Shown here piece by piece: positions 23,932-63,043 of a DNA stretch of 64,000 nt (its first letter is position 1; each line of letters starts with the position of its first letter). The notes beneath the pieces were generated by a model, which had not been told where the DNA came from, ran no database searches, and saw only the letters and a list, made by a program, of their open reading frames with translations. The translations under genes were made by a program, and so were the position numbers. The stretch spans positions 124,001 to 188,000 of the forward strand of contig JAOTOM010004564.1 of NCBI GenBank assembly GCA_034440615.1, given 5' to 3'. The DNA is from Ashinkailepas kermadecensis (taxonomy: Eukaryota > Arthropoda > Thecostraca > Neolepadidae).

Positions 23932-24262
23932 TTTACCTTTCAGCCGACATATACTGCCAAGGTTAGTGATTTGTAAAGAGGTGTACAGTGACGTCACAGG
24001 AGTCAAGGAAATGACGTCACAGGAGTCTGGTGTCGATGACGGGCACGAACATAACCTAACCTAACCTTACCTAAATTAACCTAACTTAACCTAACCTAAC
24101 CCAACCTAACCTAACCCAACCCAACCTAACCTAACCTAAGCTAACCTAACTTAGCACATCGACACCCAACTCCTGTGACGTTACTTCCTGACTCCTGTGA
24201 CGTCACTGTACACCTCTTTACAAATCACTAACCTTGGCAGTATGTGTTGGCCGAAAGGTAAA
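23932..24262. mobile_element. Inverted-repeat element with CCTAA telomere-like core
   Basis: Terminal inverted repeats of ~110 bp: ctttacctttc...tgccaaggttagtgattt, with gtgacgtcacaggagtc twice. They enclose ~100 bp of (CCTAA)n-type sequence at 24050-24150. No TSD could be fixed. Each arm carries two TGACGTCA palindromes; one is mutated in the right arm. Confidence 0.82.
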
Positions 24263-28500: not shown

Positions 28501-31500
28501 AGGAGAGTTCCTCTCTGACACATTGGAACAAGTTGGTGAAGTACCACATGGAGGTTTATTGAATGTCGCTTTGTTCGCTATTGTCATGAACAATATGGGT
28601 ACTATTACTTACTTCCGTAGGGAAAGCACTATTTGTGGGTGATTTCGCCATTTGGTGTTCTTCACACACTGTGCACGTTGTAGAGATGCAACTCCAGCTG
28701 GCTGTCCTGAAGGCGTAGAGTTGTTGTCACAAAATATGATTTGCCATGTCCACATCGAAAACCACTGCTGTTCATTTTTTGCCGCAATTGCTCTTGCATT
28801 GGTCTGGTGATTAAGATAAACGGAAACTATTTCATTCAAACCAGTTGCCAAGTTTCTAGGTGTGTGGATTGGCCGACGACTGACACACAGCACCCAATTG
28901 AATGCCCCTGCGCAGAAATGCGCAAATAGACTGCAGGTGTCGAGGACTGTCTCCAGAAACTCCTAGGATTGACTATGGGTGTTTTATTTATGACAGAACG
29001 TGTATCACGATCAAGCGTCGTCTTGACGTTCATAATGAAGCCCTTCGTATTATCGTATTTCACCAGCTGATAGTTTAGTGGCAGAGGCGGATGAGCCTCC
29101 TCTTGCGTTGCGCTGTAGGTTATTGGGAGTGAGATATGCGTGGAAGGTTGCCCATAGCCGAAAACATCCAGCCTGTCGGTGGATGTCATCGGGGCCCTCA
29201 ATGCCACGTCAGTTGCCCCGTAGTCAGCTTGGCTTACCTTTTTCCGCCCGCATAGTCTCGACCCTCTGTAACTGCAAAATTCGACCGGGTTATGTCTCAC
29301 GTGCTGTTACTCCAAGCACTCCCCCTTGGCAGGCTATCCCACCACATATTAACGTAACTTTGGCATGTTCAAATAAATAGATGTAAACTACGAGGAACTC
29401 CTGATGAAAAGAACAACATCGTGATTTCTCACGGGTCTATACAGACGGCTCTAGGTCCATTTCTGGAGTTGGAGGCGCTTGCGTCAGTTGATATGGTGTT
29501 GGATCCTTTTGTCTGCCGCAACACTCATCAATTTTTGCTGCTGAACTGTATGCCAATTTGCAAGCTCTTTATTTTGTCTAAGATGACCAGTTCACAAAGT
29601 ACATGGTTTTCACTGGTTCCCTAAGCAGTCTTTGGACAATTAAATATTTCAACCAGGATAATACGCTTGCCCGCGGGGTCATACGGGTCGTTCAATCTCT
29701 AAATGGCGTGGGCCAAAACATCTTCTGCGAGATCCCCAGCCATGTCGGACTTGCTGGAAATGAAGCTGCTGCCATGGCCGCATAGCACAGCAATGGTCGT
29801 GAATTTTGCTTATCTCTCCATTAAAGATATCTATATCCTTTTATATTATCATGTATTCGGGCAGAATGGGAACGAGTCTGGGGCTCCAAGTGTCGTAAGC
29901 CGAGGGTTCTGAAGCCGGCACTGGGACTGCGGCGGCCCTCACACCGGACCCCACGACGGGAGGAAGTTACGCTCTGCCACTTGAGGATAAGCATTCCTTG
30001 GCGAGACACATAGCTACGTGCTGATTAGAGGTGACTGACCTTTATGTCCACGTTGTTCCGGCCCACTTACTGTGTACCATGTTTTGGTAGACTGCGTACG
30101 GTTTGAACCCCCACGCCGCCAGCTTTTAGGACAGCTGAACGCCGACGCCTCTTTGCGTACCCTATTAGATAACGACTCTGAGGTCGTGGCATCTTGCGAC
30201 ATTTTTCCCTTCCTCCAAAAAGTAACTTCTGATGTGATATAACGTTGTTCCTGACGACTAACATCTGGCTACTGTAACAACATTGTAGATTGTCTGAAGA
30301 AATCACAGCGTAAAATGATTTGAGCTCAAATTCATCATAACCTGGTGACCCACTTGCATATCCCGCAGGTGCGGTGGAGATGGAGAACGTGCCGCTGCGG
30401 CGCGACGCCCTGGCCAGCCTGGATCTGCCGGTGCGCGTCACTGCCGGCTTCGTCGGCAAGATCCGGCTGTCGATCCCGGTGCGCCGGCTGAGCAGCGAGC
30501 CCTGGTCAATCTGCATCGAGCAGCTGTACCTGGTGCTCGGGCCCGTCCGTCCCGAGGAGGTAAGGTCACTGGTGGGGCACTCCTTCCTCTCCCTCCCCCC
30601 ACGTCCCTCTTCGAGCATTGACTTTGTTCGGTGTGAACCAATAAAAGTGTATTCTACGTATTTCTTGGAGAATCACAAATTTGCAGGTTGGGTGCTGTGT
30701 GACCAACGCAGTCGAATGCGCCCATAAGCCCAAATAGCCAACCAACCAACACATTTTTGGGCTGGTCGCCTGTGCGGTGTGCTCCAGTCTGTTGAGTTAC
30801 GCGGACTGATGCGGAGTACACTGTGATGGGTGCCATGTGTGGCAGATGGACGCATTGCACTATGATGGGTACCGTGTGTGTGACAAATGGACGCAGTACA
30901 CTGTGATGGGTGCCGTGTGTGGTAGATGGACGCAGTACACTGTGATGGGTGCCGTGTGTGGCAGATGGACGCAGTACACTGTGATGGGTGCCGTGTGTGT
31001 GGCAGATGGACGCAGTACACTGTGATGGGTGCCGTGTGTGTGGCAGATGGACGCAGTACACTGTGATGGATGCCGTGTGTGGCAGATGGACGCAGTACAC
31101 TGTGATGGGTGCCGTGTGTGTGGCAGATGGACGCAGTACACTGTGATGGGTGCCGTGTGTGTGGCAGATGGACGCAGTACACTGTGATGGATGCCGTGTG
31201 TGGCAGATGGACGCAGTACACTGGGATGGATGCCGTGTGTGTGACAGATGGACGCAGTACACTGTGATGGGTGCCGTGTGTGTGGCAGATGGACGCAGTA
31301 CACTGTGATGGATGCCGTGTGTGGCAGATGGACGCAGTACACTGGGATGGATGCCGTGTGTGTGACAGATGGACGCAGTACACTGTGATGGGTGCCGTGT
31401 GTGTGGCAGATGGACGCAGTACACTGTGATGTGTGCCGTGTGTGTGGCAGATGGACGCAGTACACTGTGATGGGTGCCGTGTGTGTGGCAGATGGACGCA

Positions 31501-34500
31501 GTACACTGTGATGGGTGCCGTGTGTGTGGCAGATGGACGCAGTACACTGTGATGTGTGCCGTGTGTGTGGCAGATGGACGCAGTACACTGTGATGGGTGC
31601 CGTGTGTGTGGCAGATGGACGCAGTACACTGTGATGGGTGCCGTGTGTGTGGCAGATGGACGCAGTACACTGTGATGTGTGCCGTGTGTGTGGCAGATGG
31701 ACGCAGTACACTGTGATGTGTGCCGTGTGTGTGGCAGATGGACGCAGTACACTGTGATGGGTGCCGTGTGTGTGGCAGATGGACGCAGTACACTGTGACG
31801 TGTGCCGTGTGTGTGGCAGATGGACGCAGTACACTGTGATGGGTGCCGTGTGTGTGGCAGATGGACGCAGTACACTGTGATGTGTGCCGTGTGTGTGGCA
31901 GATGGACGCAGTACACTGTGACGTGTGCCGTGTGTGTGTGGCAGATGGACGCAGTACACTGTGATGGGTGCCGTGTGTGTGGCAGATGGACGCAGTACAC
32001 TGTGACGTGTGCCGTGTGTGTGGCAGATGGACGCAGACGCAGAGGAGGCGGCCGCACGGCAGCGCCACATGTGGCAGCTGGACGCAGTACACTGTGATGG
32101 GTGCCGTGTGTGTGGCAGATGGACGCAGTACACTGTGACGTGTGCCGTGTGTGTGGCAGATGGACGCAGTACACTGTGATGGGTGCCGTGTGTGTGTGGC
32201 AGATGGACGCGGACGCAGAGGAGGCGGCCGCACGGCAGCGCCACATGTGGCAGCTGGACGCCGTGGAAGCCGCCTGGCGTGCCGAGCACGAGGCCAAGCA
32301 GGAGACATCCTACTACGCGGCCAGCTACAGCAGCTGGGTTAACTACGGCAGCAGCATTGTCGGCAACATCGTCGCCAATCTGCAGGTGGTGGTTAGCTCT
32401 GACAAGGAAAATTGAGCGAGCTAATCAATGAAAGAACAAAAGATTATGTGATGGAATAGATTAATGGGCTCTTTAACATAAATATATGGGTCCAAGGATG
32501 AATGCAGATAGGAATGTTGTTAAGGACGGAGATGTCCAGAGTCGCTCCATCCACTGTTCGCAACGTACGCATATGATCCGAGGAGTCTCCTCTAATCTGA
32601 CTTCGCCGTGCTCTCCCAGTTGACGACCAGTGATGTGCACGTACAGTGCGAGGAGTCTCCTACCTTCTGACCCCACCATATACCCCCAGCTCACGACCAG
32701 TGATGTGTACGTGCGGCGAGGAGTCCCCTTCCCTCCGACCCCACCATCCACTCCCAGCTGATGATCAGGGATGTGCACGTGCGGTGCGAGGAGTCCCTGC
32801 CCTCTAACCCCCCTCCTGCAGCTGACGATCAGAGATGTGCACGTGTGGTATGGTGAGTCCCCTACCTTCTGACTCCACCCTCCGCACCCAGCTGACTATT
32901 AGAGATGTGCTGTATGGTAAGTCCCCTGCCCTCTGACCCCACCCCCTCCCCCAGCTGACGATTCGGGACGTACACGTGAGGTACGAAGAGTCTGGGTTTG
33001 CGGCCGGTCTGACGATAGCGGCGCTGACGGCGCAAAGCTGCGACGATCGCTGGGTGCCCGGCTTCGTGACCGAAAGTCGCGACAACATGCGCTTCAAGCT
33101 ACTGGAGCTGCAGCAGCTGGACGTCTACTGGGACACCAAGGCAGAGATGTACTCTGACCTCAGCATTGGACAGCTCGCTGTAGGTGGCGCAAGGCGTGAG
33201 CCGCACTAACGGTTAGGTCACTGTCTTGAAACTGTGCTACTGCATGCTTCGGGGGACAGCGGTCGTCAGAGATGGCCGGTGTTGAGTTAGGGGGTAGTCT
33301 GGTCTCGGTGGGTGGGCAATGACTGAGTCACATGGTTCTATATTGAGGAGAAGATGACCAGACAAGACTGTAGGTTGATGACGGGACAATGCTTCGTTAT
33401 GATGTTTGGGGCTGGATGGTCTCGCGACGATCTCGGGCCATTTGTCAACAGGTGACAGTATCGGACTGTGATCCGGGGCGTGGCAATGTCGGGCCGTGTT
33501 TCGGGTGATGATCTTGGGCCGTGTCTCGGGAGGTGATGATCTTGGGCCGTGTCTCAGGAGGTGATGATCTTGGGCCGTGTCTCAGGAGGTGATGATCTTG
33601 GGCCGTGTCTGAGGAGGTGATGATCTTGGGCCGTGTCTCAGGAGGTGATGATCTTGGGCCGTGTCTCGGGAGGTGATGATCTTGGGCCGTGTCTCAGGAG
33701 GTGATGATACTGTGCCGTATTTCAGGAGGTGATGATCTCAGGCAGGCAGCACGAGTTTCTGCTGTCGCCGGTGACGGTGCAGGCGCGGCTGAAGCGAGAC
33801 TGCTGCGAGCGGCCGCTGCGCTCGCGGGCCCGGCCGCGCCACGTGCTGGACCTGCAGTGCGAGCGGCTGTGCCTGTCGCTGGCCGACTCGCAGTTCCGCC
33901 AGGCGGTGCGCTGCGCGCGTAGCATGGAGGTGCTGAACCGACGGCGCCGCTGTCTGCGCCACCGGCCGGCCAGTCCGGTCGGCGCCGCTCCCGCCGCCTG
34001 GTGGCGGTTCGCCATCCTGACGCACGTGGATCGGATCGAGCGCCGCCGCCGGAACCGCACGTGGCCGGCGGCGGTGGCGCGCGCCGCCGAGGCGGTGCAG
34101 TACGCGGCCGTCTACTCCGAGCATCTGCGCTGCCCCGCCACCCTGTCAGCCGAGCAGCGCGCGCTGCAGCAGCACGTGGAGGCGCACTGGGAGTACGACT
34201 CGCTGGCGGCTCTGCGCGAGTGGTGCATGCTGCGCGTGGAGCGCGAGGAGGCGCGACGTCGCGAGGCGGGCGCGACGACGGCCGGCAGCGGGCGCAGTCT
34301 GCTGCAGTCGTGGTTCCCGCTCTGGGGCGGCTGGTACGCCAGCACGGACGACTCGGAGCGGGCGGATGCCGAGAGGCCCGAGCTGGAGCAGGCGCTCGAT
34401 CAGATGGTCGACACACTGGACAACAGCTCGGCGCTGCGACGGGACGCCGTATTCGGCCAGCTGAACTTCAGCCTCAGCCAGGCCGAGATGAAGCTTGTCC

Positions 34501-55500: not shown

Positions 55501-58500
55501 CAGGTGGACGGCCAGAGGTGGCTGCTGGTGACTTCTGGCGGCTGGTAACAGTCGCGCCGTGACCCCAGGTGGACGGCCGGAGGTGACTTCTGGTGGTGAC
55601 CTCTGGCGGCCAGTAACGGTCGCGCCGTGACCCCAGGTGGACGGCCGGAGGTGACTTCTGGTGGTGACCTCTGGCGGCCAGTAACGGTCGCGCCGTGACC
55701 CCAGGTGGACGGCCGGAAGTGACTTCTGGTGGTGACCTCTGTCGGCCAGTAACGGTCGCGCCGTGACCTGAGGTGCACGGCCTGACTTCTGGCGGCCAGT
55801 AACGGCCGCGCCGTGACCCCAGGTGGACGGCGAGAGGTGGCTGTCGGTGACTTCGGGCGGTCAGTAACGGCCGCGCCGTGACCCCAGGTGGACGGCCAGA
55901 GGTGACTGGCGGTGACCTCTGTCGACCAGTAACGGTCGCGCTGTGACCTCAGGTGGACGGCCAGTTCGTCACTCCGGTGCGGCTGTCGGTGCTGAAGTCG
56001 CAGTATGAGCAGATCCTGCGGACGCTGGACCAGCTGACCGTGCCGTCGGCCGACGACGACGGTGTCGGCGCCGACGACGGGCAGTCGCAGCAGGAGGGTA
56101 CGTGGCGGCCCGATCGGCAGCCGACGCCACCGACGGCCGGGCTGCTGACGTGGCGTTCGACTTTCCCGGCGCTATTGCGGTGTGGGAAAGTGACGACGTC
56201 GCGTGGTTCTCGCAGCTAAGCTCATCGTAGCGGGACTGCACGGTTTTCTCTGGACTGCGCAGCACTCGGGAGTGTCAATTTAAGCACTGTGTTCAACTAT
56301 GGCCGACTGAGTTATACATTCGATTCGGTTGTGGTGTGTGCACCTGTGCGTTTTGCTGAGCATGAGTCGAGTGGGCGGTATGTTGTGACGGTGACTGATT
56401 CGCTGTTTCGTCCCTCGTTCCGACCAGACGAAGGTGACGCGGCCGGAATTGCCGCTGAAGACGCACCGGATAGGAAAGTGCCTGTCACGCAGAGCCTGAG
56501 CGTACCCATCCATGGTGAGGATATACAGAACCAGGACATCCATGCGATATGAGGACATACGGTACCAGGGCATGTGCATGCATGGGGAAGACATGCAATA
56601 ACTAGAGCATACACATGCATGACGAATACATACAGAACCAGGCATCCCCAGCCCTGGTAAGGTCGCACAGAGTTAGGGCATACTGTGAGGATATTGAGAA
56701 CCAGGTATGCTCATTCAGGATTAGCTGGAACCAGCGACTGCTTTTGATCATAAAGCTTGTTGAATATACGCATGACGTTTCGACTACTCTGACATGCTGC
56801 AGTCCCCATGGAATAGAACCATTTTACTTCAAAACCGGAAAACACCGATGAGACGTATTTCTCATGGAATGCTTAATTCAAGTGGTCCATGTTTTGGAAA
56901 TATCGCTGTTTTGTGATGGCCTGCACACGGGCGTGGAGCGACCTCTTTGCTCTTACTGGCACCGGGGGTAACCACTGTTGGTTTTCGTTATTAATTTCGC
57001 ATTGCTGGACCGAATAAGGACCTATCCTCCATCACATCGCAGCCGACCCTGCCCCCTCCCCCCTGTGAGTTAACCTCAAGCCTGGCATTCCCTCGCAGGC
57101 TCGTTCCAGCTGCCCGAGTTCGAGATGGAGCTGCGCAGTGACATGGGCGGCGGCGAGGCGCGAGGTCTGGTGACCCTCACCCTCAGTCGGCTGTCGCTGA
57201 CGTACGACCGTCTGCAGACAGAGCTGACCCAACTGGAGGTCACACTGCAGGAGGTCACCATGGAGGACCTGCTGCAGGAGCCGACGGCGGCGCACAGATA
57301 CCTGCTGACCTCGCACGATTCGTGAGTCACGCCACAAATACCTGCTGGCCTCACATGACTCGTGAGTCACGGCACAGATACCTGCTGACCTCACACGACT
57401 CGTGAGTCGTACCACATATACCTGCTGACCTCACACGACTCGTGAGTCGTACCACATATACCTGCTGACCTCACACGACTCGTGAGTCACACCACGGATA
57501 CCAGCTGACCTCACACGACTCGTGAGTCGCACAATAGATACCTACTGTGTGGTGGCCTACCGTCGCCCTTACTTGACACCGATACGTTTATGCATGGCCC
57601 GACTGACGTAGTTATGGGCGCTGTATTGCCCATGCGGTTGATGCGCCCTTAAACCCTAATCACAACTGTGTGGTGGCAGTGCTCGTGTTGTGTCGTCGGG
57701 CAGCTGCGGTATTGTGGTGTTTGCTTGCTGTGTGTTTTTTTCGTGTCTGACAGCTGCTGAGTAGCAGTGTGCTGTTTGTCCGTCTGACTGCAGCTACTGT
57801 GTGCTGTTTGTCCGTCTGACTGCAGCTATTGTGTGCTGTTTGTCGGTTTGATAGCAGCTATTATGTGTTGTTTGTCCGTCTGACAGCAGCCATTATGTAC
57901 AGTTTGTCCGTCTGACGGCAGCTGTTGTGTGGTGTTTGCCTAGTGTTTTGGCCGTGGTGGGGCGTGTGTGTTACATTTACGGCTGCCGTGTGGTGTTTGT
58001 CTCGTCTGATGCCTGCCCTGTGACCGTCAGCCGTGTGTGTCACATTGACGGCTGCCGTGTGGTGTTTGTCTCGTCTGATGCCTGCCCTGTGACCGTCAGC
58101 CGTGTGTGTCACATTGACGGCTGCCGTGTGGTGTTTGTCTCGTCTGATGCCTGCCTTGTGACCGTCAGCCGTGTGTGTCACATTGACGGCTGCCGTGTGG
58201 TGTTTGTCTCGTCTGATGCCTGCCTGTGACCGTCAGCCGGTGTGTCACATTAACGGCTGCCGTGTGGTGTTTGTCTCGTCTGATGCCTGCCCTGTGACCG
58301 TCAGCCGTGTGTGTCACATTGACGGCTGCCGTGTGGTGTTTGTCTCGTCTGATGCCTACCCTGTGACCGTCAGACGGTCGGTGCGGCGGCCGTCGGCGGT
58401 CAGCTCGTTCCTGTCCGCCTCGTGTCCGGACATTGCCGCCGTACTGGTGGACCGCGAGGAGAGCGGCCCGCTGGAGACTCCCAGCGGCAGTCTGCCTGCC

Positions 58501-61500
58501 AGACTCAACGGTGTTGGTCTCCTCGGTGCTGGTGGCGGACCACGGCGTCTGCAAGGTATGCTGACACTCCACGCGACCACACCGGTCACTTCGTCTAAAG
58601 ACCAAATACCTTTTACGTAGATGTTATTCTGATAAATTATGCAAAGGATGGAGATTAAATGTTTTTTCTTCATTTGATAGTGTCATGAGCAACTGATATA
58701 TCAAATCAAGTAGGTCACGGCAAGCCGGCTTTATGATTACTAGGCAGTGACATTTGCACTATTTTTAAAGATGTCGAAGATAGTCGAAGTCGCACTCAAT
58801 CGCTCCGTTGCGCTTGTAACTTTGCACGAATAGCCAAGTGTGGCGACTACGGCACGCACGTGACTAGGGTTACTACTAGATTTATTTATGTCTGCCACTT
58901 CACCAGCGATAACTGAACGCGGTTTTGTGGAGAGGTCATGACCTAATCAATGCGTAAACCATCGAGCAATGAATCAAATGTCATGACAATGTATGCCTAA
59001 GGTGACAGCGTCTGATGTTAACCCGGTGTTAGCCGACATAGGTCGGGCCTGACTTCTGACCCGAGGCTGGCCACCGAGCCCTCATGTCTTTCGATGTCAC
59101 CTTGACCTGACCTGAATTTGAGCTGATTTGACCGCTGACCCGTGATTTGTGACCCTTCGTCAACGTCCTTGCGCCTACCGACACTGCATTGACCTGACAT
59201 TTGACCCGCCGCTAGTGCGCCGGTTTCCGCCGACGTGGCACTGATCTGAATTCTGAGCCGACTTGACCTGACCTTTGGTCGGTCGCCAGAGTCCCGGTGT
59301 CCTCCGACACCGGCGGGCGGTCCGCGCCGGCCGACCTCGCCGCCACGGCCGCCGGAGCGCGCGCTGATCCAGTGCACGGCCGTCCTGCGGGGCGGCCGCG
59401 CCGCCGTCAGCCGCACCGTCGACCTCAACTTCAACTGTCTCGACGTGGTCGTCAGCCCACAGTCGTGGGTCATGGTGCTGGACTTCTTCGGCGGTCCGCC
59501 GCAACCCGAGATTACGGTGAGTCGCTGCGGGCTGTATGGCGGGAGCTCACGGTGGGTCTCGCTGCGGACTGTATAGCGGGAGCTCACGGTAGGTCTCACC
59601 GCGGACTGTATGGCGGGAGCTCACGGTAGGTCTCGCTGCGGACTGTATGGCGAAAGCTCACGGTGAGTCGCTGCGGACTGTATGGCGGGAGCTCACGGTG
59701 GGTCTCGCTGCGGACTGTATGGCGAGAGCTCACGGTGGGTCTCGCTGCGCACTGTATGGCGGGAGCTCACGGTGGGTCTCGCTGTGGACTGTATGGCGGG
59801 AGTTCACGGTGGGTCTCGCTGCTGAATGTGTGGCGAGAGCTCACGGTGAGTCGCTGCGGACTGTATGGCGGGAGCTTACGGTTGGTTTGCTGCGATATGC
59901 GGTGTTCACGGTGAGTCGCTGCGGACTGTATGGCGGGAGCTTACGGTTGGTCTCACTGCGGACTGTATGGCGAGAGTTCACGGTGCGTCTCATTGTGGAC
60001 TGTATGGCGGGAGCTCACGGTAGGTCTTAGTGTGGACTGTGCGATTGGTGTTAGCCTCAGGTCTTGACGCCGCGTGAACGCGGCGTCTGCATGCGGTTGC
60101 GATTCATTTCACGACTCCATCTTATTTACGACTGCATTGCATATCCTGCTAGCGCTCATTGTCTGTGCCATGATCGGCCCGATCTCGGCTTGCTATGTGA
60201 GATCAATAGGGTCTACACATGTTCTACCATCTTGCTGCTCCGTATCGGACGGTACCACGGCCGACACCGCGTGCTCCGTGTCCGGGGTGTAGTCGCCGAG
60301 CGGTGACCAGCACCGCGACCGACATCGCGTACCCCGTGTCCGGGGTGTAGTCGCCGAGCGGTGACGAGCACCGCGACCGACACTGCGTGCCTAGTCTCCG
60401 GAGTTTAGTCGCCGAGCGGTGACCAGCACCACGGCCGACACTTTGTGCCCCGTGTCGGGAGTGTAGTCGCCGAGCGGTGACCAGCACCACGGCCGACACT
60501 GCGTGATCCGTCTCAGGGGTGTAGTCGCCGAGCGGTGACCAGCACCACGGCCGACACTGCGTGCTCCGTCTCCGGGGTGTAGTCGCCGAGCGGTGACCAG
60601 CACCGCGACCGCTGCGCGCCGGCAGGTGTCTCCGGAGCCGGGCGCGCTGCGCAGCGCCTCCCGGCCCGCCTTCGCCGACGGCAGCCAGCAGGCGACGGAG
60701 ATCCTGGTGCGGGTACACTCGCTCAGTCTGCTGCTCAACCAGCCGGGCTGCGGCGCCCTGGCGCGCGCCACGGTCACCGACTACAGCAGCCGCACCGTCT
60801 CGTCGGCCGACCGGGCCGACACGTCCGGCCGCCTGGGCGCCCTCAGCATGGTGGACCTCACCGCTCACGGCGCCCTCTACAGGGAGAGATTCGTCACCAG
60901 CGGACCGGAGGCGGTGCATTTCGATTTTGTCAAGTGAGTGGCAGCAGCGGTTGTGTTTGCCGTGGTGTTGCACACACTTTGTGTGTGCTGTTTTGTCTCA
61001 GCGCGCGTAGTTGTGTCCAATATTTCGCGTTGGATTTGAATAGGCGTGCGACCGCACCAATGTGTTTCATATCATACGAAACAAACGCAGGCAAAGTATA
61101 AAAGAGTGATGGGACTTGCCTGTATTGTTATGCTTAGCACGGATCGCATTGTTCGATTTTGTCCGACCTCTGACTGGGGCGCGCCCCTGTCCGCCAGGTA
61201 CCACGCACCGGACGTGGCCCTGCGACGCGCGTGCGATATGGAGCTGCGCCTGCAGATGGCCTCGGTGCTGTACGTGCACACGCAGCGATTCCTGACGGAG
61301 CTGCTGCAGTTCTGCGCGCACTTCAGCCAGCTGCAGGACCTGCTGGACACGCTGCGAGCCGCCTCCGCCGGCGACGACGTGAGAGCACGCGAGAACGGCG
61401 GGAAATACCGAGCTGGTGCTCTCGTGCCACCCGTCCACACTGCATTACGTTCTGCAATATGTTCTGCCTGAAGTTTTAGGTTTTCTGACTGAAGTTTTTC

Positions 61501-63043
61501 TGAAGTTTTAGGTTGTCTTTTCGTGAAAACTACGAAATGTAGTCGCGATTGTTATTCGTGTCTGGAATTTTTCATCCACGTGTAGCACTTCGGCTAACGA
61601 ACTTGTGTTGCACACGTGTAGCACGGGTGTACTTCCCATATCGCACACTTGTAACACGGGTTTACTTCACATGTCCACGTGGGGGACGAGTGGTCTAGGG
61701 GTAAGATGCTCGTCTCGCAATCGAAAGATTGTGGGTTCGAATCTCACCTGTCGCTACTCTTCGCCCGCGACCAATCGGCGTGAGAGATTGGCGACGCTAT
61801 ATGACTCAACGGTCGACGTGTCGTAAAACCAATAACCAACCAACCAATCACATGTCCACGTGATAGATGTAATGAAACAGAGGTAAGCTCTCATGACAAC
61901 TGCGCCGTTTCAAAGCTTCGTAATTTGCTTCGGTTTTGTGATCTAATGTTCGTAGTCCGAACACTAATTGGTACGAAGCTGGTCTGGAGTCTCCGGCATG
62001 TGGAACTGAAAAAAGCCATCGGTGCCCCGCCAGATTGAGCTGGGAGATAACTAGCTGTTCTCCACGGGGTGGAGCTGGAGTATAACCAGCTATGGCTCAC
62101 CAGATGGAGCTGGGAGATATCTAGCCATTCTCCATGAGGTGGCGCTGTTGTATAACCATCTGTGGTTCACCAGGTGGAGCTGGGAGATAACTAGCCATTC
62201 TCCATGTGGTGGAGCTGGAGGATAACCAGCTGTGGCCCACCAGGTGGCGCTGGAGTATGACCAGCTGTGGCCCACCAGGTGGCGCTGGAGTATACTGGGG
62301 GGTGGGTGGTATGACCAGCTGTGGCCCACCAGGTGGCGCTGGAGTATGACCAGCTGTGGCCCACCAGGTGGAGCTGTCGTCGCGCGGCAGCCGCATCTCG
62401 CTGGACATCCAGGCGGGCTCGCCGGTGCTGCTGCTGCCCGTGTCCGCCGCGTCGCGGCAGGTGTTGGTGGCCGACCTGGGCCGACTGCGGGTCACAAACT
62501 CGTTCCGCTTCTCCGGACCGGAGCCGGCCGCCGCCGCCGCCAGGGACATACCCTTCTCCAGGAGGTGAGAGATACACTGCTCCGTGGCGTGAGAATGGTC
62601 GGGGGTGTGTGGTGATGCCTGTATGAAGCCTCACCTAGTGATGTCAGTATGGAGCATCACCTAGCGATGCCCATGTGAAGCCTCACCTAGTGATGCCCAT
62701 ATGGATCCTCACGTGGTAGATGGTAAATGCGTCGTACCACCGGAGCACCAGAGTTCGTTCTGGGTACTGATGTTGGTTAGTGCCAGCAGGATTGCTCCGC
62801 GCGGCCGGATATCTCCCGTGCTGCGGCCTGCGTTGTTTCGGTACTGATGTTGGTTGGGGTCGGCAGGATTGCCCCGCGCGGCCGGGTATCTCCCGTGCCG
62901 CGGCCCGCGTTGTCTCGGTACTGATGTTGGTTGGTGTCGGCAGGATTGCCCCGCGCGGCCGGGTATCTCCCGTGCTGCGACCCGGAGCCCGCGAGAGGCC
63001 TGCCTCGCCGGACGCCGAGCCATGTCTACTCGATGTCATGGAG
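25499..63043 (+). CDS. VPS13D: VPS13D orthologue, 5' half (32 exons; continues beyond window)
   Basis: Bridge-like lipid transfer protein of the VPS13/chorein family. In animals VPS13D moves phospholipids between ER and mitochondria or peroxisomes and is needed for mitochondrial size and clearance. The joined exons give 2,074 codons with no stop, and the phases fit at all 31 junctions. Similarity to animal VPS13D is co-linear: chorein N-terminus (residues 1-96), extended chorein region with the VPS13D-like [11 protein letters not shown] stretch (residues 233-498), then groove repeats such as [16 protein letters not shown] and [12 protein letters not shown]. The UBA, VAB and C-terminal DH-like/PH parts lie past the right edge (known family layout, not seen). 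Intron 1 is 4.8 kb. Exons are very GC-rich. The paralogue call D, rather than A/C or B, rests on remembered family sequence, not on an alignment that was run. Confidence 0.93.
25790..26140 (+). repeat. Dispersed repeat family D, copy 2 (VPS13D intron 1)
   Basis: Diverged direct copy of 24270-24600, lying just after exon 1. Confidence 0.75.
26290..26760. repeat. Degenerate ~35-bp tandem repeat (intron 1)
   Basis: Repeats of the type cccgtgatcactctcgtgac with many substitutions. Minus-strand ORFs here are artefacts. Confidence 0.7.
27330..30115 (+). mobile_element. Decayed non-LTR retrotransposon in VPS13D intron 1
   Basis: In order along one strand: the endonuclease-RT linker ([20 protein letters not shown], ~27430-27490); RT pieces [14 protein letters not shown] (~28160) and [12 protein letters not shown] then VPHGGLL (~28480-28570); the catalytic strand as LFVGDFAIW (~28626), where the usual second Asp-box residue is Gly; a C-terminal DYGCFIYD...HNEALRII part (~28970-29060); and an RNase H domain with [10 protein letters not shown] (29438), AAELYA (29537), TGSLSSLW and [11 protein letters not shown] (~29735). 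It is broken by several stops and at least one frameshift. The RNase H points to an I/Jockey/R1-like group. Inactive. Confidence 0.85.
30369..30559 (+). CDS. VPS13D: VPS13D exon 2 (chorein domain)
   Basis: Acceptor cccgcag. Encodes [20 protein letters not shown] and on to GPVRPEE (residues 33-96), the second part of the chorein domain that forms the lipid-groove entrance. Donor gtaagg, phase 0. Confidence 0.95.
30690..30750 (+). mobile_element. Short retroposed tail, copy 1 (no clear TSD)
   Basis: A ~60-bp piece starting gggtgctgtgtgacc and ending atgcgcccataagccc and an aaccaac-rich tail. Same 3' end as the copies at 46670, 49451, 52863 and 57557. Confidence 0.6.
30790..32202 (+). repeat. 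41-bp minisatellite copied from the exon 3 splice acceptor
   Basis: About 32 units (mostly 41 bp, some 39) from intron 2 up to exon 3. Each unit contains ggcagatggacgca, which is the exon 3 acceptor plus its first codons, followed by gtacactgtgatgg. All three minus-strand frames are open across it (480-550 codons) because the unit lacks stops. Confidence 0.97.
32027..32085 (+). pseudogene. Duplicate of the exon 3 head inside the array
   Basis: 59 bp identical to the start of exon 3 except one substitution, with the acceptor gtgtggcag intact. It then runs straight into array sequence at ctggacgcag. There is no donor and no exon body, so it cannot be a complete exon. Confidence 0.95.
32203..32385 (+). 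CDS. VPS13D: VPS13D exon 3
   Basis: Acceptor gtgtggcag, then [20 protein letters not shown] through [10 protein letters not shown] (residues 97-157); donor gtggtg. The acceptor is the last of about 32 near-identical copies in a 41-bp array, and only this copy leads into the full exon. Confidence 0.92.
32545..32954 (+). repeat. Five to six degenerate copies of the exon 4 acceptor and head
   Basis: ~66-72-bp units. Each has a C-rich tract, cag, then ctgacgatcagagatgtgca-like sequence (exon 4 begins ctgacgattcgggacgta). Copies start near 32620, 32686, 32757, 32820 and 32894. The two nearest exon 4 have gained gtgagt and gtaagt donors. Confidence 0.9.
32955..33179 (+). CDS. VPS13D: VPS13D exon 4
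   Basis: Acceptor ctcccccag, then [14 protein letters not shown] and on to [10 protein letters not shown] and SIGQLA (residues 158-232), matching the conserved core that follows chorein_N. Donor gtaggt, phase 0. Degenerate copies of its first ~40 nt lie upstream. Confidence 0.94.
33490..33725 (+). repeat. 28-bp array copied from the exon 5 acceptor
   Basis: Eight units of tctcaggaggtgatgatctt plus gggccgtg. Exon 5 itself begins after tttcag with gaggtgatgatctc. The acceptor AG is preserved in most units. Confidence 0.95.
33726..34525 (+). CDS. VPS13D: VPS13D exon 5 (largest exon)
   Basis: An 800-nt exon (residues 233-498) encoding [15 protein letters not shown], the RPLRSR motif, [13 protein letters not shown] and [11 protein letters not shown]; the last is a distinctive VPS13 signature. 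Ends GPER|gtaagc in phase 2. The reverse-strand ORFs over it are GC-rich shadows. Confidence 0.95.
34526..35074. other. VPS13D intron 5
   Basis: No array or mobile element recognised. Confidence 0.5.
35075..35383 (+). CDS. VPS13D: VPS13D exon 6
   Basis: Acceptor gttggcag. Encodes [15 protein letters not shown] through [19 protein letters not shown] (residues 499-601), with family motifs [10 protein letters not shown] and FELIYE. Donor gtacgtg, phase 2. Confidence 0.92.
35384..35858. other. VPS13D intron 6
   Basis: Nothing recognised beyond splice signals. Confidence 0.5.
35859..35990 (+). CDS. VPS13D: VPS13D exon 7
   Basis: Acceptor ctgtgtgcag. Encodes [18 protein letters not shown], the strongly conserved VYNP block of VPS13 proteins (residues 602-645). 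Donor gtcagt, phase 2. Confidence 0.93.
35991..36676. other. VPS13D intron 7
   Basis: Anonymous AT-rich intron; nothing recognised. Confidence 0.5.
36677..36821 (+). CDS. VPS13D: VPS13D exon 8
   Basis: Acceptor ccattttgtcag. Encodes [20 protein letters not shown] and [14 protein letters not shown] (residues 646-694), the ISAP groove-repeat motif. Donor gtgagt, phase 0. Confidence 0.93.
36822..38520. other. VPS13D intron 8, 5' part
   Basis: Mostly anonymous. A GGC/GCA triplet tract lies at ~38287-38325. Confidence 0.5.
38521..38965 (+). repeat. 75-bp minisatellite, six copies (intron 8)
   Basis: Unit begins ggcgtcaccgctgagccgtc and ends ggtatatatctgtgtt. Copies are nearly identical. The length is a multiple of three, so several frames stay open; there is no evidence of coding. 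Confidence 0.96.
38998..39091 (+). repeat. Two-copy duplication at the exon 9 acceptor
   Basis: A ~50-bp unit gctatatgtatcccgatgtg + tgtctgtgtgtg occurs twice; the second copy runs into the exon 9 acceptor. Confidence 0.8.
39092..39230 (+). CDS. VPS13D: VPS13D exon 9
   Basis: Acceptor gtgaccctgcag. Encodes [18 protein letters not shown] and an acidic tail ending DELDDD (residues 695-740). Donor G|gtacga was chosen because it is the only one that joins in phase to exon 10 ([10 protein letters not shown]). The frame stays open downstream, so a longer form cannot be excluded. Confidence 0.85.
39231..40068. other. VPS13D intron 9
   Basis: Open for a while past the exon 9 donor (GC-rich), then AT-rich. 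Nothing else recognised. Confidence 0.5.
40069..40255 (+). CDS. VPS13D: VPS13D exon 10
   Basis: Acceptor gtcgtcccgcag. Encodes [14 protein letters not shown], an Ala/Ser/Thr-rich linker, then [12 protein letters not shown] (residues 740-802); the same loop in VPS13D relatives is acidic/TP-rich followed by a YER-like motif. Donor gtgagc, phase 2; tandem copies of the donor region follow. Confidence 0.9.
40256..40530 (+). repeat. Donor-side array after exon 10
   Basis: About four diverged units containing gtgagcggc or gtgggcgcc, tctgtctccgtctgggtcac, and acacggtcgggtgtggcagg. The first starts exactly at the exon 10 donor gtgagcggcgtctgt. Confidence 0.85.
40880..41005 (+). repeat. Dispersed repeat family C, copy 2
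   Basis: gataactggcagaccgtttt, cgcatcggagggcctctcat, a C tract, then taaggtctttggaact. In intron 10. Confidence 0.85.
41189..41312 (+). CDS. VPS13D: VPS13D exon 11
   Basis: Acceptor gctgttgcag. Encodes [20 protein letters not shown], a diagnostic VPS13D block, then [10 protein letters not shown] (residues 803-844). Donor gtgcgtgg, phase 0. Confidence 0.95.
41313..41680. other. VPS13D intron 11
   Basis: G tract at ~41476; otherwise nothing recognised. Confidence 0.5.
41681..41826 (+). CDS. VPS13D: VPS13D exon 12
   Basis: Acceptor accttccccag. Encodes [20 protein letters not shown] and [20 protein letters not shown] (residues 845-892), a conserved groove repeat. Donor gtcagtcc, phase 2; one diverged copy of the donor neighbourhood lies ~35 bp downstream. 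Confidence 0.93.
42012..42128 (+). repeat. Dispersed repeat family C, copy 3
   Basis: Close copy of 40880-41005 in intron 12: gataagtggcagaccgtttt, cgcatcggagggcctctcat, C tract, tggaactacggaag. Confidence 0.85.
42129..43452. other. VPS13D intron 12, 3' part
   Basis: Anonymous AT-rich DNA, then GT-rich simple sequence and a tgacctgacctgacc run (~43350-43390) before the exon 13 acceptor. Confidence 0.5.
43453..43785 (+). CDS. VPS13D: VPS13D exon 13
   Basis: Acceptor cagccacag. Encodes a Pro/Ala-rich linker ([11 protein letters not shown]) and then [33 protein letters not shown] and LVASHRSVT (residues 893-1003). The LLLVD..QTYG.DF block is diagnostic. Donor gtgagt, phase 2. Confidence 0.92.
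44075..44459 (+). repeat. 75-bp array copied from the exon 14 acceptor and head
   Basis: Five intronic copies with acceptors ending at 44092, 44167, 44242, 44317 and 44392 (exactly 75 bp apart), then the real one at 44459. Each carries ggcagtgtggacagcgtgag and the next ~40 nt of exon 14, then ctcgtgacgtgtcgtgt. Read in the exon frame, each copy meets a TGA. Confidence 0.97.
44460..44608 (+). CDS. VPS13D: VPS13D exon 14
   Basis: Acceptor cgtgtcctgcag. Encodes [20 protein letters not shown] and then a Ser/Pro/Ala loop to TTADLR (residues 1004-1053); SGSLMDS matches the GSLRDS of the vertebrate protein. Donor gtacgt, phase 1. Five intronic copies of its acceptor and head precede it. Confidence 0.9.
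44609..45231. other. VPS13D intron 14
   Basis: No array or element recognised; a G tract at ~44990. Confidence 0.5.
45232..45405 (+). CDS. VPS13D: VPS13D exon 15
   Basis: Acceptor atccctggcag. Encodes [16 protein letters not shown], then [20 protein letters not shown] and [13 protein letters not shown] (residues 1053-1111), the NxLDvI groove motif. Donor gttagt, phase 1. Confidence 0.88.
45450..45880 (+). repeat. ~165-bp tandem repeat, three copies (intron 15)
   Basis: Each copy has ctttataactttatatagg, gcagtggattcagcac and gatactgatgagattgtc. The third is shortened. Family B repeat follows directly. Confidence 0.95.
45906..46050. repeat. Dispersed repeat family B, copy 2
   Basis: Near-identical to 3846-3989: taggctgcgatatatagctt to cttaacactttatgac. 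Confidence 0.88.
46417..46518 (+). CDS. VPS13D: VPS13D exon 16
   Basis: Acceptor gggtcgacag. Encodes [20 protein letters not shown], corresponding to the PETIVELIGFL motif of VPS13D (residues 1112-1145). Donor gtacgt, phase 1. Confidence 0.93.
46670..46724 (+). mobile_element. Short retroposed tail, copy 2 (55 bp, TSD)
   Basis: Starts gggcgccaaatgacc and ends gcgcgcccttgaacccaaat plus aatcaatcaa. TSD tttgtctgtccca (46657-46669) and tttgtctggccca (46725-46737), one mismatch. In intron 16. Confidence 0.85.
46745..48760 (+). repeat. 22-bp satellite, ~2 kb (intron 16)
   Basis: About 90 units of gacgctgaccgtgacgcagt + gt, with 11-bp half-unit variants (gacgcagtgtgac) and cgtgactcggtgtt variants in patches. 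It stops ~20 bp before the exon 17 acceptor. The long minus-strand ORFs over it are artefacts. Confidence 0.97.
48777..48888 (+). CDS. VPS13D: VPS13D exon 17
   Basis: Acceptor gccgcccgccag, just after a 2-kb 22-bp satellite. Encodes [18 protein letters not shown] and [10 protein letters not shown] (residues 1146-1182). Donor gtaagtg, phase 2, joining to [14 protein letters not shown]. Confidence 0.87.
48889..49434. other. VPS13D intron 17, 5' part
   Basis: Anonymous; no element recognised. Confidence 0.5.
49451..49465 (+). mobile_element. Minimal retroposed tail, 15 bp with 16-bp TSD
   Basis: gcccaaataactaac lies between two perfect copies of tacaacactgcactaa (49435-49450 and 49466-49481). 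The 15 bp match the 3' end of the short retroposed tail family (aagcccaaataatcaatc). Confidence 0.7.
49482..50961. other. VPS13D intron 17, 3' part
   Basis: Loose repeats of cagctcagacc type (49500-49600, 50620-50890). Just before exon 18 come four imperfect copies of cgtgacgctgc, the last being part of the acceptor cgtgacgctgcccgcag. Confidence 0.55.
50962..51187 (+). CDS. VPS13D: VPS13D exon 18
   Basis: Acceptor gacgctgcccgcag. Encodes [38 protein letters not shown] and [16 protein letters not shown] (residues 1183-1258), a strong VPS13D match. Donor CAG|gtgggt, phase 0. A second, stronger-looking donor CAG|gtaggt 60 nt downstream stays in frame. Confidence 0.93.
51188..51290 (+). repeat. 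30-bp donor-side array after exon 18
   Basis: Exon 18 ends gaccagtctcag|gtgggtgt. Further copies at 51209-51225 (accagcctcag|atgagt) and 51238-51253 (gaccagtctcag|gtaggt) follow at exact 30-nt steps, then a fading third. The frame is open, so the 51248 donor would add 20 residues. Confidence 0.93.
51692..51805 (+). CDS. VPS13D: VPS13D exon 19
   Basis: Acceptor cgccctgacag. Encodes [18 protein letters not shown] and [19 protein letters not shown] (residues 1259-1296), in phase with exons 18 and 20. Donor gtacgc. Confidence 0.88.
51806..52248 (+). repeat. Degenerate copies of exon 20 and its acceptor (intron 19)
   Basis: Pieces like the exon 20 core ttcttggcggaactgggcgg occur at ~51868, ~51941 and ~52020. 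gtgccaccaaggtacg at ~52050 resembles the acceptor. A ~100-bp unit with gactgtaggataatt and gtagcacacattgtaattc occurs twice at 52085-52245. Confidence 0.6.
52249..52400 (+). CDS. VPS13D: VPS13D exon 20
   Basis: Acceptor cgtgccgccag. Encodes [20 protein letters not shown] and [17 protein letters not shown] (residues 1297-1346); VPS13 members have the ASLHYNHSAKFL-type motif here. Donor gtgagc, phase 2. Confidence 0.92.
52418..52650 (+). repeat. CAC/CCA-rich array after exon 20
   Basis: Units of ccaccaccaccactcactca, starting 17 nt after the exon 20 donor. Confidence 0.95.
52863..52920 (+). mobile_element. Short retroposed tail, copy 3 (58 bp, perfect TSD)
   Basis: Starts gggcgccaaatgaccgagta like copy 2 and ends gcccttaagcccaaataa plus tcaatcaatcga. 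Perfect 15-bp TSD ttagactagtcggtt at 52848-52862 and 52921-52935. In intron 20. Confidence 0.92.
52970..53160 (+). repeat. ~28-bp degenerate array up to the exon 21 acceptor
   Basis: Repeats of ggtggtgcagtgacgtggtc type. The acceptor of exon 21 (ctggtggtgcggcag) looks like one more unit. Confidence 0.65.
53161..53274 (+). CDS. VPS13D: VPS13D exon 21 (linker)
   Basis: Acceptor ggtgcggcag. Encodes a low-complexity Pro/Ser/Asp/Thr linker ending AETSDLDL (residues 1347-1384), a loop that is variable across the family. Supported mainly by phase and splice sites. Donor gtcagcc, phase 2. Confidence 0.75.
53275..53718. other. VPS13D intron 21
   Basis: No array recognised apart from a short gaatgaggt duplication at ~53642. 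Confidence 0.5.
53719..54033 (+). CDS. VPS13D: VPS13D exon 22
   Basis: Encodes [38 protein letters not shown] and [16 protein letters not shown] to [11 protein letters not shown] (residues 1385-1489), matching the VVSIP..LLVGHLGQI block. The acceptor is uncertain: gcccctag at 53718 or ggctgag at 53763 both keep the frame. Donor gtcagt, phase 2. Confidence 0.85.
54034..54535 (+). repeat. 36/42-bp donor-side array after exon 22
   Basis: Exon 22 ends aacctcag|gtcagtg. About twelve units follow, each with acctcgg|gtgagtg or ccttgag|tcagtg and actggtgacagggactg. Many contain a consensus-like gtgagt. Confidence 0.93.
54536..54842. other. VPS13D intron 22, 3' part
   Basis: No element recognised. 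Confidence 0.5.
54843..54999 (+). CDS. VPS13D: VPS13D exon 23
   Basis: Acceptor cccccttctgcag. Encodes [18 protein letters not shown] and [19 protein letters not shown] (residues 1490-1542), aligning with the NTTIQFKLEKI block. Donor gtcagg, phase 0. Confidence 0.9.
55441..55952 (+). repeat. 65-68-bp array copied from the exon 24 acceptor and head
   Basis: Seven intronic copies of gtgaccccag|gtggacggcc, the exon 24 junction being gtgacctcag|gtggacggcc. Copy junctions fall at 55504, 55569, 55637, 55705, 55773, 55823 and 55888, and the real one at 55953. Confidence 0.97.
55953..56097 (+). CDS. VPS13D: VPS13D exon 24
   Basis: Acceptor gctgtgacctcag. Encodes [20 protein letters not shown] and [17 protein letters not shown] (residues 1543-1590), matching the FVNPV...YEQVLQTLDNL motif. 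Donor G|gtacgt, phase 1. Seven diverged copies of its acceptor and head lie upstream. Confidence 0.94.
56098..56427. other. VPS13D intron 24
   Basis: Nothing recognised. Confidence 0.5.
56428..56514 (+). CDS. VPS13D: VPS13D exon 25 (small linker exon)
   Basis: Acceptor ctcgttccgaccag. Encodes [20 protein letters not shown] and TQSLSVPIH (residues 1591-1619). The family sequence is variable here, so support is phase 1 on both sides, the splice sites and the SLSV motif. Donor G|gtgagg. Confidence 0.78.
56515..56715 (+). repeat. Degenerate donor-side repeats after exon 25
   Basis: The exon 25 junction catccatg|gtgaggatat and the following cagaaccagg recur, diverged, four or five times (e.g. 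tgtgaggatattgagaacca at ~56685). Confidence 0.6.
56716..57098. other. VPS13D intron 25, 3' part
   Basis: Nothing recognised. Confidence 0.5.
57099..57321 (+). CDS. VPS13D: VPS13D exon 26
   Basis: Acceptor cattccctcgcag. Encodes [48 protein letters not shown] and [11 protein letters not shown] (residues 1620-1693). The MEDLL.E...YK.L..S motif is conserved. Donor gtgagt, phase 2, repeated five more times downstream at exact 40-bp steps. Confidence 0.94.
57322..57540 (+). repeat. 40-bp donor-side array after exon 26
   Basis: Five extra copies of acctgctgacctc...gactc|gtgagtc, with donors at 57362, 57402, 57442, 57482 and 57522, all exactly 40 bp apart, after the real donor at 57322. Each keeps a consensus gtgagt. 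Confidence 0.98.
57557..57664 (+). mobile_element. Short retroposed tail, copy 4 (~108 bp, TSD)
   Basis: Ends gatgcgcccttaaaccctaa plus tcaca, the longest copy of the family. Perfect 13-bp TSD actgtgtggtggc (57544-57556 and 57665-57677). In intron 26. Confidence 0.8.
57740..57935 (+). repeat. ~37-bp array (intron 26)
   Basis: About five units of gtccgtctgactgcagctat + tgtgtgctgttt, each with a cag. Confidence 0.88.
57936..58373 (+). repeat. 69-bp array copied from the exon 27 acceptor
   Basis: Acceptor copies cctgtgaccgtcag end at 58030, 58099, 58168, 58236 and 58304, and the real one at 58373. Between them is ccgtgtgtgtcacattgacg + gctgccgtgtggtg. Translated in the exon 27 frame the unit is open. 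Confidence 0.97.
58374..58555 (+). CDS. VPS13D: VPS13D exon 27
   Basis: Acceptor tgtgaccgtcag. Encodes [20 protein letters not shown] and then [18 protein letters not shown] (residues 1694-1754); FLSASCPDI corresponds to YLSQSCPSV. Donor gtatgc, phase 1. Five copies of the acceptor precede it at 68-69-bp spacing. Confidence 0.9.
58556..59289. other. VPS13D intron 27
   Basis: The last 250 bp hold loose tgacctgacc motifs. No clear array. Confidence 0.5.
59290..59516 (+). CDS. VPS13D: VPS13D exon 28
   Basis: Acceptor cggtcgccag. Encodes [31 protein letters not shown] and [20 protein letters not shown] then VLDFFGG (residues 1755-1830), a hallmark VPS13D block. Donor gtgagt, phase 0, followed by a donor-like array. 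Confidence 0.95.
59517..60045 (+). repeat. ~36-bp donor-side array after exon 28
   Basis: Exon 28 ends attacg|gtgagtcgctgcgg. About fourteen units of gagctcacg|gtgggtctcgctg follow, with gtgagt, gtgggt or gtaggt at the same place. Confidence 0.96.
60226..60625 (+). repeat. ~59-bp array related to the exon 29 acceptor
   Basis: Six units of gtgaccagcaccacggccga + tctccggggtgtagtcgcc. The real junction is gtgaccagcaccgcgacc ... ggcag|gtgtctccggag, so the copies resemble it but most lost the AG. Confidence 0.88.
60626..60933 (+). CDS. VPS13D: VPS13D exon 29
   Basis: Acceptor cgcgccggcag. Encodes [35 protein letters not shown] and [20 protein letters not shown] then [13 protein letters not shown] (residues 1831-1932). 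VHSLSL and YRERF.TSG are diagnostic. Donor gtgagt, phase 2. Confidence 0.96.
60934..61197. other. VPS13D intron 29
   Basis: Short intron without array. Confidence 0.5.
61198..61378 (+). CDS. VPS13D: VPS13D exon 30
   Basis: Acceptor ctgtccgccag. Encodes [20 protein letters not shown] and [19 protein letters not shown] (residues 1933-1993); MASV.YVHTQRF is nearly invariant in VPS13D. Donor gtgaga, phase 0. Confidence 0.96.
61681..61847 (+). mobile_element. tRNA-derived SINE (VPS13D intron 30)
   Basis: ~167 bp: A box TGGTCTAGGGG, anticodon-like loop CTCGCAA, B box GGTTCGAATC, then a body ending in cgtgtcgtaaaaccaataac and a ccaaccaa tail. A perfect 14-bp TSD, tcacatgtccacgt (61667-61680, 61848-61861), indicates a fairly recent insertion. 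Not a working tRNA gene: the acceptor and anticodon stems do not pair. Confidence 0.93.
62040..62367 (+). repeat. 35-bp array copied from the exon 31 acceptor
   Basis: Copies of gtggcccaccag|gtggcgctgg, the exon 31 junction being gtggcccaccag|gtggagctg. Junction copies at 62174, 62244, 62279 and 62333, then the real one at 62368; older 70-bp dimers lie further up. Confidence 0.95.
62368..62564 (+). CDS. VPS13D: VPS13D exon 31
   Basis: Acceptor gtggcccaccag. Encodes [40 protein letters not shown] and [13 protein letters not shown] (residues 1994-2058), the LDI.AG.PVLL.P and VA.LG.L blocks. Donor gtgaga, phase 2. Four copies of its acceptor lie within 200 bp upstream. Confidence 0.94.
62625..62715 (+). 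repeat. ~31-bp repeat (intron 31)
   Basis: Three to four units of agcctcacctagtgatgccc type after exon 31. Confidence 0.85.
62762..62990 (+). repeat. ~77-bp repeat, three copies, up to exon 32
   Basis: Units with tactgatgttggttggtgtc, ggcaggattgccccgcgc and gtatctcccgtgctgcg. The third runs into the tentative exon 32. Confidence 0.9.
62998..63043 (+). CDS. VPS13D: VPS13D exon 32 (short, tentative)
   Basis: A 46-nt exon giving [16 protein letters not shown], like the SPEDHVCLLD motif that follows the previous block in VPS13D. The acceptor (gcgagag) is poor but is the one that fits the phase. Donor gtgagg, phase 0. The next exon is not in the window, so the extent is uncertain. Confidence 0.6.

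What the first reader, a model, noticed from the sequence alone, without database searches (positions are those of the whole stretch)
30560..62997. VPS13D introns are filled by minisatellites copied from their own splice junctions
In about a dozen of 31 introns the tandem unit is the adjacent exon-intron junction itself. Acceptor type (introns 2, 3, 4, 13, 23, 26, 28, 30; weaker in 19, 20): polypyrimidine end + AG + exon head. Donor type (introns 10, 18, 22, 26, 28; weaker in 25): exon tail + GT. The arrays lie only on the intron side and the unit length differs each time (28 to 75 bp), so they arose independently. This looks like a recurrent process: tandem duplications spanning a splice junction survive because the outer site keeps working. 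It leaves dozens of decoy sites in one gene and lengthens introns from their ends. I know of no named class for this.
Basis: partly seen in the sequence, partly recalled or inferred. Interest (0 to 1): 0.93.

Follow-up and report, generated by a model that had tools for sequence, protein, structure and literature searches.

The report
Splice-border minisatellites in barnacle VPS13D
In a VPS13D-like gene from a likely barnacle, 13 of the 60 intron ends examined are copied into their own intron, a pattern earlier named "mirages" in amphioxus, and it is likely tolerated because splicing would keep using the copy next to the exon.

Summary
I built a 31-exon gene model with an open frame of 2030 codons. 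Of 60 junctions, 13 have copies of themselves inside their own intron (5 donors, 8 acceptors, in 11 of 30 introns). None of 1740 junction-to-foreign-intron comparisons scores as high, nor does any of 55 pseudo-junctions 75 nt inside exons. Exon similarity is confined to about 60 nt (acceptor) or 30 nt (donor). Arrays of different introns are unrelated, so each arose locally. Of 88 decoy copies at 13 junctions, 78 keep AG or GT; only 3 of those would keep the frame open if used.

Four of its calls do not pass (acceptors 19, 20, 28; donor 22) and donor 10 is one-sided; it missed two (donor 13, acceptor 27). And the class has a name: "mirages", described in amphioxus genes. New here are the density in one gene and the host: the closest relative found is the barnacle Pollicipes, so this is likely an arthropod case. 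Array edges cluster at junctions more than uniform duplication predicts (17 of 26 against 7.6). RNA, reads and the rest of the genome could not be examined.

The parts
30369..63043 (+).
   Evidence: 2030 codons, no stop; VPS13 family; Pollicipes VPS13D-like hit
30815..32202 (+). intron 2 acceptor array, 41-bp unit, 33 decoys, 32 with AG
32027..32088 (+). 62-nt copy of the head of exon 3 captured inside the intron 2 array
   Evidence: 116 of 122 aligned columns identical, flank included; position read
32615..32954 (+). intron 3 acceptor array, about 68-bp unit, carries 38 nt of exon 4 head
33504..33725 (+). intron 4 acceptor array, 28-bp unit, 13 nt of exon 5 head
43786..43913 (+). intron 13 donor: degenerate repeats of exon 13 tail plus donor, not found by TRF
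   Evidence: score 40; best foreign for this probe 29
44071..44459 (+). intron 13 acceptor array, 75-bp unit, at least 49 nt of exon 14 head
51188..51284 (+). intron 18 donor array, 27/30-bp unit, 20 nt of exon 18 tail, 1 of 3 decoys with GT
55457..55952 (+). intron 23 acceptor array, about 68-bp unit, 12 nt of exon 24 head; most decoys read CAG|GTGGAC
56515..56680 (+). intron 25 donor: degenerate repeats about 34-37 bp apart, 17 nt of exon 25 tail, 1 of 4 decoys with GT; not found by TRF
57322..57547 (+). intron 26 donor array, 40-bp unit, 29 nt of exon 26 tail
57963..58373 (+). intron 26 acceptor array, 69-bp unit, ends exactly at the acceptor AG; exon part about 5 nt
59189..59234 (+). intron 27: one diverged copy of the acceptor with 19 nt of exon 28 head
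   Evidence: 35 of 46 identical
59517..60040 (+). intron 28 donor array, 37-bp unit, 9 nt of exon 28 tail
62022..62367 (+). intron 30 acceptor array, 35-bp unit, 9 nt of exon 31 head; several decoys read CAG|GTGGAG or CAG|GTGGCG
40280..40514 (+). intron 10 array starting 24 nt after the donor; repeats the intron side only (below cut-off)
54056..54529 (+). intron 22 array starting 22 nt after the donor (below cut-off, rank 2)
60254..60611 (+). intron 28 array ending 14 nt before the acceptor (below cut-off, rank 3)

Best explanation
These are mirage-type minisatellites: 13 exon-intron borders of one VPS13D-like gene are repeated inside their own intron, and they likely began as separate small tandem duplications that spanned a splice site and were tolerated because splicing would keep using the copy next to the exon. 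Shown: the passing copies match their own junction better than any foreign pair; the exon part is confined to the border; the TRF arrays of different introns are unrelated; 78 of 88 decoys keep AG or GT. Inferred: a duplication that spans an acceptor leaves the last copy, and one that spans a donor leaves the first copy, as a working site, so the protein does not change; the array then grows by unequal exchange among its units. The intron 2 array holds a 62-nt piece of exon 3 head, which fits an exchange between the array and the real exon. Inferred: the exon-proximal site wins by position, through exon definition (shortest exon), because 35 of 55 decoys outside intron 2 score at least as high as their own real site.
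For: Own-junction copies: 13 of 60 against 0 of 1740 foreign pairs and 0 of 55 pseudo-junctions 75 nt inside exons. Exon windows of 24 nt match the upstream intron at 2-3 of 29-30 exons per step for starts 0 to 48 nt from the acceptor, and the downstream intron at 3, then 1, of 30 for starts 0 and 12 nt from the donor; no window further in matches, and randomly chosen non-adjacent introns give 0 at every step. Of 26 intronic TRF arrays, 9 cross a junction. 78 of 88 decoys keep the dinucleotide. 36 of 88 decoys score at least as high as their own real site, 35 of 55 outside intron 2 and 1 of 33 in intron 2 (my sums of the rows). Use of 75 of the 78 intact decoys would shift the frame or meet a stop. 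At 10 of 11 array introns at least one of 7 relatives' proteins crosses the exon-proximal join without a nearby gap; introns 2, 3, 13 and 25 in every relative that spans them. Same pattern and name in amphioxus.
Against: No RNA, so use of the outer site is not shown. Array edges lie at junctions more often than uniform duplication plus selection gives (17 of 26 against 7.6; crossing 9 of 26 against 4.5, P 0.018), so something beyond tolerance may act. In acceptor 26 the exon part is about 5 nt, so that array may be intron-only. The join at intron 27 has no gap-free relative (0 of 4) and that at intron 30 only one (1 of 5). Acceptor 27 is a single diverged copy, not an array. One gene only.
Confidence: 0.77

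Rival explanations
1. Splice junctions are true hotspots: sequence or transcription-linked damage at intron ends seeds duplications there, rather than random duplications filtered by selection.
For: 17 of 26 array edges within 25 nt of, or across, a junction against 7.6 expected; 9 of 26 cross against 4.5 expected. The acceptor ends of introns 2 and 8 are simple GT-rich tracts.
Against: The null rests on estimated pre-growth intron lengths and TRF edges, and two of the 26 rows are pieces of one array. One gene. No breakpoint homology was resolved.
Confidence: 0.3
2. The copies are kept because they do something: spare splice sites, or AG|GT units (introns 18, 23, 30) that would act as dual-specific or recursive splice sites so that wrong use is repaired.
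For: AG/GT is kept in 46 of 55 decoys outside intron 2 against 38.4 expected from other dinucleotides of the same copies. AG|GT dual-specific sites, enriched in tandem repeat genes, are reported (PMC10809524, abstract).
Against: Copies within an array are not independent, so 46 against 38.4 is weak, and in acceptor 4 and donors 18 and 25 fewer are kept than expected. Exon and intron sides of copies are equally like the real one (0.878 and 0.883). Only 3 of 78 decoys give an open frame. Units at the other arrays are not AG|GT.
Confidence: 0.1
3. The introns themselves were created by tandem duplication of exonic AGGT segments (Rogers-type intron gain), and the arrays are the remains.
For: Tandem genomic duplication is an accepted route of intron gain (PMC3443670, passages), and the amphioxus authors propose it for mirages.
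Against: In intron gain of that kind both ends of the intron derive from one duplicated segment; here donor and acceptor regions of the same intron do not resemble each other (30 introns, highest score 16, foreign maximum 25), and the donor-side and acceptor-side arrays of introns 26 and 28 are unrelated. Degeneration could hide old likeness. Intron age could not be tested.
Confidence: 0.05
4. Assembly artefact: false expansion or misjoining of repeats at intron ends.
For: Raw reads and the assembly could not be examined; the genome search did not complete. One amphioxus mirage was misassembled in its draft.
Against: Copies differ from one another (70 to 96% matches at the passing arrays that TRF finds), each array has its own unit, and the reading frame is intact.
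Confidence: 0.04

Closest known systems
Amphioxus mirages (Adh3, globin BflGb6 and BflGb9, troponin C, PGBD5)
   Same: Minisatellite-like tandem duplications that span an intron/exon boundary, on the donor or the acceptor side, unit length different at each locus, AG/GT kept in many units, reported not to disturb mRNA splicing (PMC3087553, PMC3902484)
   Different: Reported in cephalochordates in the papers seen; here the closest named relative is a barnacle, with 13 junctions in one gene and two introns (13, 26) passing at both ends
Intron gain by tandem genomic duplication (Rogers model)
   Same: Tandem duplication of a segment that holds splice-site letters
   Different: There a new intron is made within an exon; here existing introns would grow from their ends
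Internal tandem repeats in human segmental duplications (PMC2812944, passages)
   Same: Minisatellite expansion, in some cases at exon-intron borders, changes gene structure
   Different: There the repeats expanded in recent primate paralogs and may form novel introns; no junction-derived unit series in one gene is described in the passages seen
Dual-specific splice sites, polyubiquitin UBC (PMC10809524, abstract)
   Same: Tandem array of AGGT sites
   Different: UBC units are ubiquitin monomers; only introns 18, 23 and 30 here carry AG|GT units, and use is untested

Membership tests
Mirages | tandem repeats whose unit spans an intron/exon boundary | tested here: met
   13 of 60 junctions; exon part only about 5 nt in acceptor 26, and a single copy at acceptor 27
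Mirages | both 5' and 3' boundaries can be affected | tested here: met
   5 donors, 8 acceptors
Mirages | unit length varies between loci | tested here: met
   TRF periods 27/30 to 75 bp at passing arrays
Mirages | many but not all repeats hold AG/GT | tested here: met
   78 of 88
Mirages | regular mRNA splicing is not disturbed | not testable with these tools
   no RNA; relatives' proteins agree with outer-site joins at 10 of 11 array introns in at least one relative
Mirages | length instability between haplotypes or in the soma | not testable with these tools
   one haplotype only
Intron gain by tandem genomic duplication | donor and acceptor both come from one duplicated AGGT segment | tested here: not met
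   own donor against own acceptor region: highest of 30 is 16, foreign maximum of 870 is 25; old, degenerate likeness is not excluded
Intron gain by tandem genomic duplication | intron absent from relatives | not tested
   no relative's gene sequence at hand
Dual-specific splice-site arrays | AGGT used as both donor and acceptor | not testable with these tools
   AG|GT letters seen in introns 18, 23, 30; no RNA

The most novel reading that the evidence does not exclude
Splice junctions are hotspots of tandem duplication, and introns in some very polymorphic animal lineages grow from their ends by repeated copying of their own splice borders. The same process in cephalochordates and in a barnacle would make mirages a general, convergent route of intron lengthening, with exon definition strong enough to ignore dozens of near-perfect decoys.
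Probability: 0.3. Interest if true: 0.82.

Novelty: new member of a known kind. Interest (0 to 1): 0.6.

Why it matters
If the outer sites are indeed the ones used, the gene is a natural competition test for splice-site choice: one real site against up to 33 close copies in a single intron, most of which would ruin the protein if used. It would move mirages, reported from amphioxus in the papers found here, to an arthropod, and it gives an in-gene statistical test. If the edge clustering holds genome-wide, it would tie intron length to duplication at splice borders. Gene finders may well stumble on such genes; the closest barnacle entry is labelled LOW QUALITY PROTEIN, for a reason I did not look into.

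Tried and rejected
Chance or low complexity: rejected by foreign-intron, permutation and pseudo-junction controls. Mobile element or shared repeat: of 325 array pairs, only two pieces of one intron 30 array match (TRF arrays only, so donors 13 and 25 and acceptor 27 are not in it). Donor 10: intron side only. Amphioxus as host: not pursued, as the closest named protein is from a barnacle and an AACCT (TTAGG-type) array lies at 24048-24150. Purging of decoys: not seen; the dinucleotide is kept slightly more often than expected overall, too weak to build on. Breakpoint microhomology: looked at by eye in introns 3 and 13, edges too blurred, no result. One search's alignment display mostly fell on the junction itself and told nothing except for acceptor 26; redid it with the junction excluded, and gave none for acceptors 19, 20, 31 and donors 10, 22, and only a short, weak match for acceptor 28 and donor 13.

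Choices that affect counts: the score cut-off of 30 was set after seeing the foreign maximum of 29. One search tested 17 junctions and found decoys at 13; acceptors 20, 27, 28 and donor 13 gave none at the ungapped cut-offs used, so they are not in the 88, while donors 10 and 22, which do not pass the junction test, are. Donor of exon 9 and acceptor of exon 22 each have a second possible position in frame (by eye). In one search four exons were given to Pfam and two matched.

Full report
Gene and host. I placed 31 exons from 30369 to 63043 on the + strand with an open frame of 2030 codons and GT/AG at all 30 introns. Of four exons given to Pfam, exon 5 and exon 11 match VPS13_N, below Pfam's own cut-off for whole proteins; the first 686 residues match four VPS13 structures. 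The best named relative for the second half is a VPS13D-like protein of the gooseneck barnacle Pollicipes pollicipes, with 66% identity over residues 910-1668, 71% over 1851-2030 and 89% over 1738-1784; its lineage is Thecostraca, Cirripedia. The window is therefore likely from a barnacle, and likely not from Pollicipes pollicipes itself; its species is not known. Recall of vertebrate VPS13D guided exon choice. Against seven relatives, 28 of 30 joins are crossed without a gap within 4 residues by at least one of them; introns 21 and 27 by none, and introns 22 and 30 by Pollicipes alone. In poorly conserved stretches such a crossing means little.

Test of the observation. For each of 60 junctions I took up to 30 nt on each side and asked for the best alignment that straddles the junction within the interior of its own intron and within the 29 other introns. 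Donors: 5 of 30 own scores reach 30, 0 of 870 foreign. Acceptors: 8 of 30, 0 of 870. Passing acceptors: 2, 3, 4, 13, 23, 26, 27, 30. Passing donors: 13, 18, 25, 26, 28. These lie in 11 introns. Pseudo-junctions 75 nt inside exons give 0 of 27 and 0 of 28, maximum 23. Windows of 24 nt of exon match the neighbouring intron only near the border.

Anatomy. Tandem Repeats Finder gives 26 intronic arrays of period 10 or more in this gene; 9 cross a junction. The exon part of the copies is 62 nt in acceptor 2, 38 in 3, 13 in 4, 49 in 13, 12 in 23, 5 in 26, 19 in 27 and 9 in 30; in donors 20 in 18, 17 in 25, 29 in 26 and 9 in 28. For donor 13 one search aligned only 7 exon nt, while the forced-span test gives an exon-side score of 33. 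The 62 nt in intron 2 come from a captured exon head at 32027-32088; the usual unit there holds 8 nt of exon. TRF arrays of different introns are unrelated. Three further TRF rows lie wholly in exons and are 36 to 46 bp long.

Decoys. Of 17 junctions examined, 13 gave decoys, 88 in all; 78 keep AG or GT. At acceptors 3, 4, 13, 23, 26 and 30 and donors 26 and 28, between 2 and 6 decoys score at least as high as the real site; at acceptor 2, 1 of 33; at donors 10 and 22 none. Using an intact decoy would keep the frame open in 3 of 78 cases. Exon and intron sides of the copies are equally like the real one (0.878 and 0.883), so there is no sign of coding constraint; AG/GT is kept in 46 of 55 outside intron 2 against 38.4 expected, which argues against purging but is weak.

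How it likely works. A tandem duplication across a junction leaves one copy in the old relation to the exon. If that copy is used, the protein is unchanged, so the event would be tolerated, while one wholly inside an exon would not. The array would then grow by unequal exchange. That the exon-proximal site is the one used is inferred from frame and relatives, not seen in RNA; exon definition is the likeliest reason. Uniform duplication with such a filter would give 4.5 crossing arrays and 7.6 with an edge at or near a junction; 9 and 17 are seen (P 0.018 and 4.5e-5). The null depends on TRF edges and on estimated original intron lengths, and two of the 26 rows are one array, so a junction hotspot is possible, not shown. 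Creation of these introns by duplication is not supported: donor and acceptor regions of the same intron are no more alike than foreign pairs.

Known class. [quoted passage not shown] a passage of PMC3902484 adds troponin C and PGBD5. The 2002 Adh paper itself is not held, and I have read nothing of it. In the listings I saw no report of mirages in an arthropod; some lists were cut (15 of 197 shown, 20 of 27, 15 of 26), only titles and starts of abstracts were seen there, and the library holds only openly licensed papers. "Tandem" occurs 0 times in the main texts of the Pollicipes and Balanus improvisus genome papers, of which I saw passages. The Balanus paper's title reports extreme nucleotide diversity in coding regions; amphioxus is also known, from recall, for high diversity. 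Whether that is linked is open.

Limits. One gene, one assembly, no reads, no RNA, no second species' introns. The genome search did not complete.

Noticed in passing
8857-9765, minus strand: Intronless ORF holding a protein of about 240 codons with one metagenome relative carrying PF07574 (47% identity); by recall it resembles NSMCE1 of the SMC5/6 complex.
   Followed up: partly
23950-24240: AACCT (TTAGG-type, arthropod telomere by recall) repeats enclosed by what looks by eye like inverted flanks, as in a foldback element.
   Followed up: no
18561-22790: Two large arrays of about 428 bp unit; the same translated stretch appears on the + strand in the first and the minus strand in the second, so they may be opposed arms.
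   Followed up: no
46782-48755: Two-kilobase array of a 22-bp unit in intron 16 that ends 21 nt before the acceptor but does not match it.
   Followed up: partly
57745-57938: 32-bp array in intron 26 whose unit contains CAGCAG, lying between the donor and acceptor arrays; could be an older acceptor-like series.
   Followed up: no
61682-61757: tRNA-Ala-like sequence inside intron 30, possibly the head of a SINE.
   Followed up: no
46667-46735, 52861-52920 and, weaker, 57612-57665: Similar short dispersed stretches (GGCGCCAAATGACC ... CGCGCCCTT ... AATCAATCAAT) in several introns, seen by eye.
   Followed up: no
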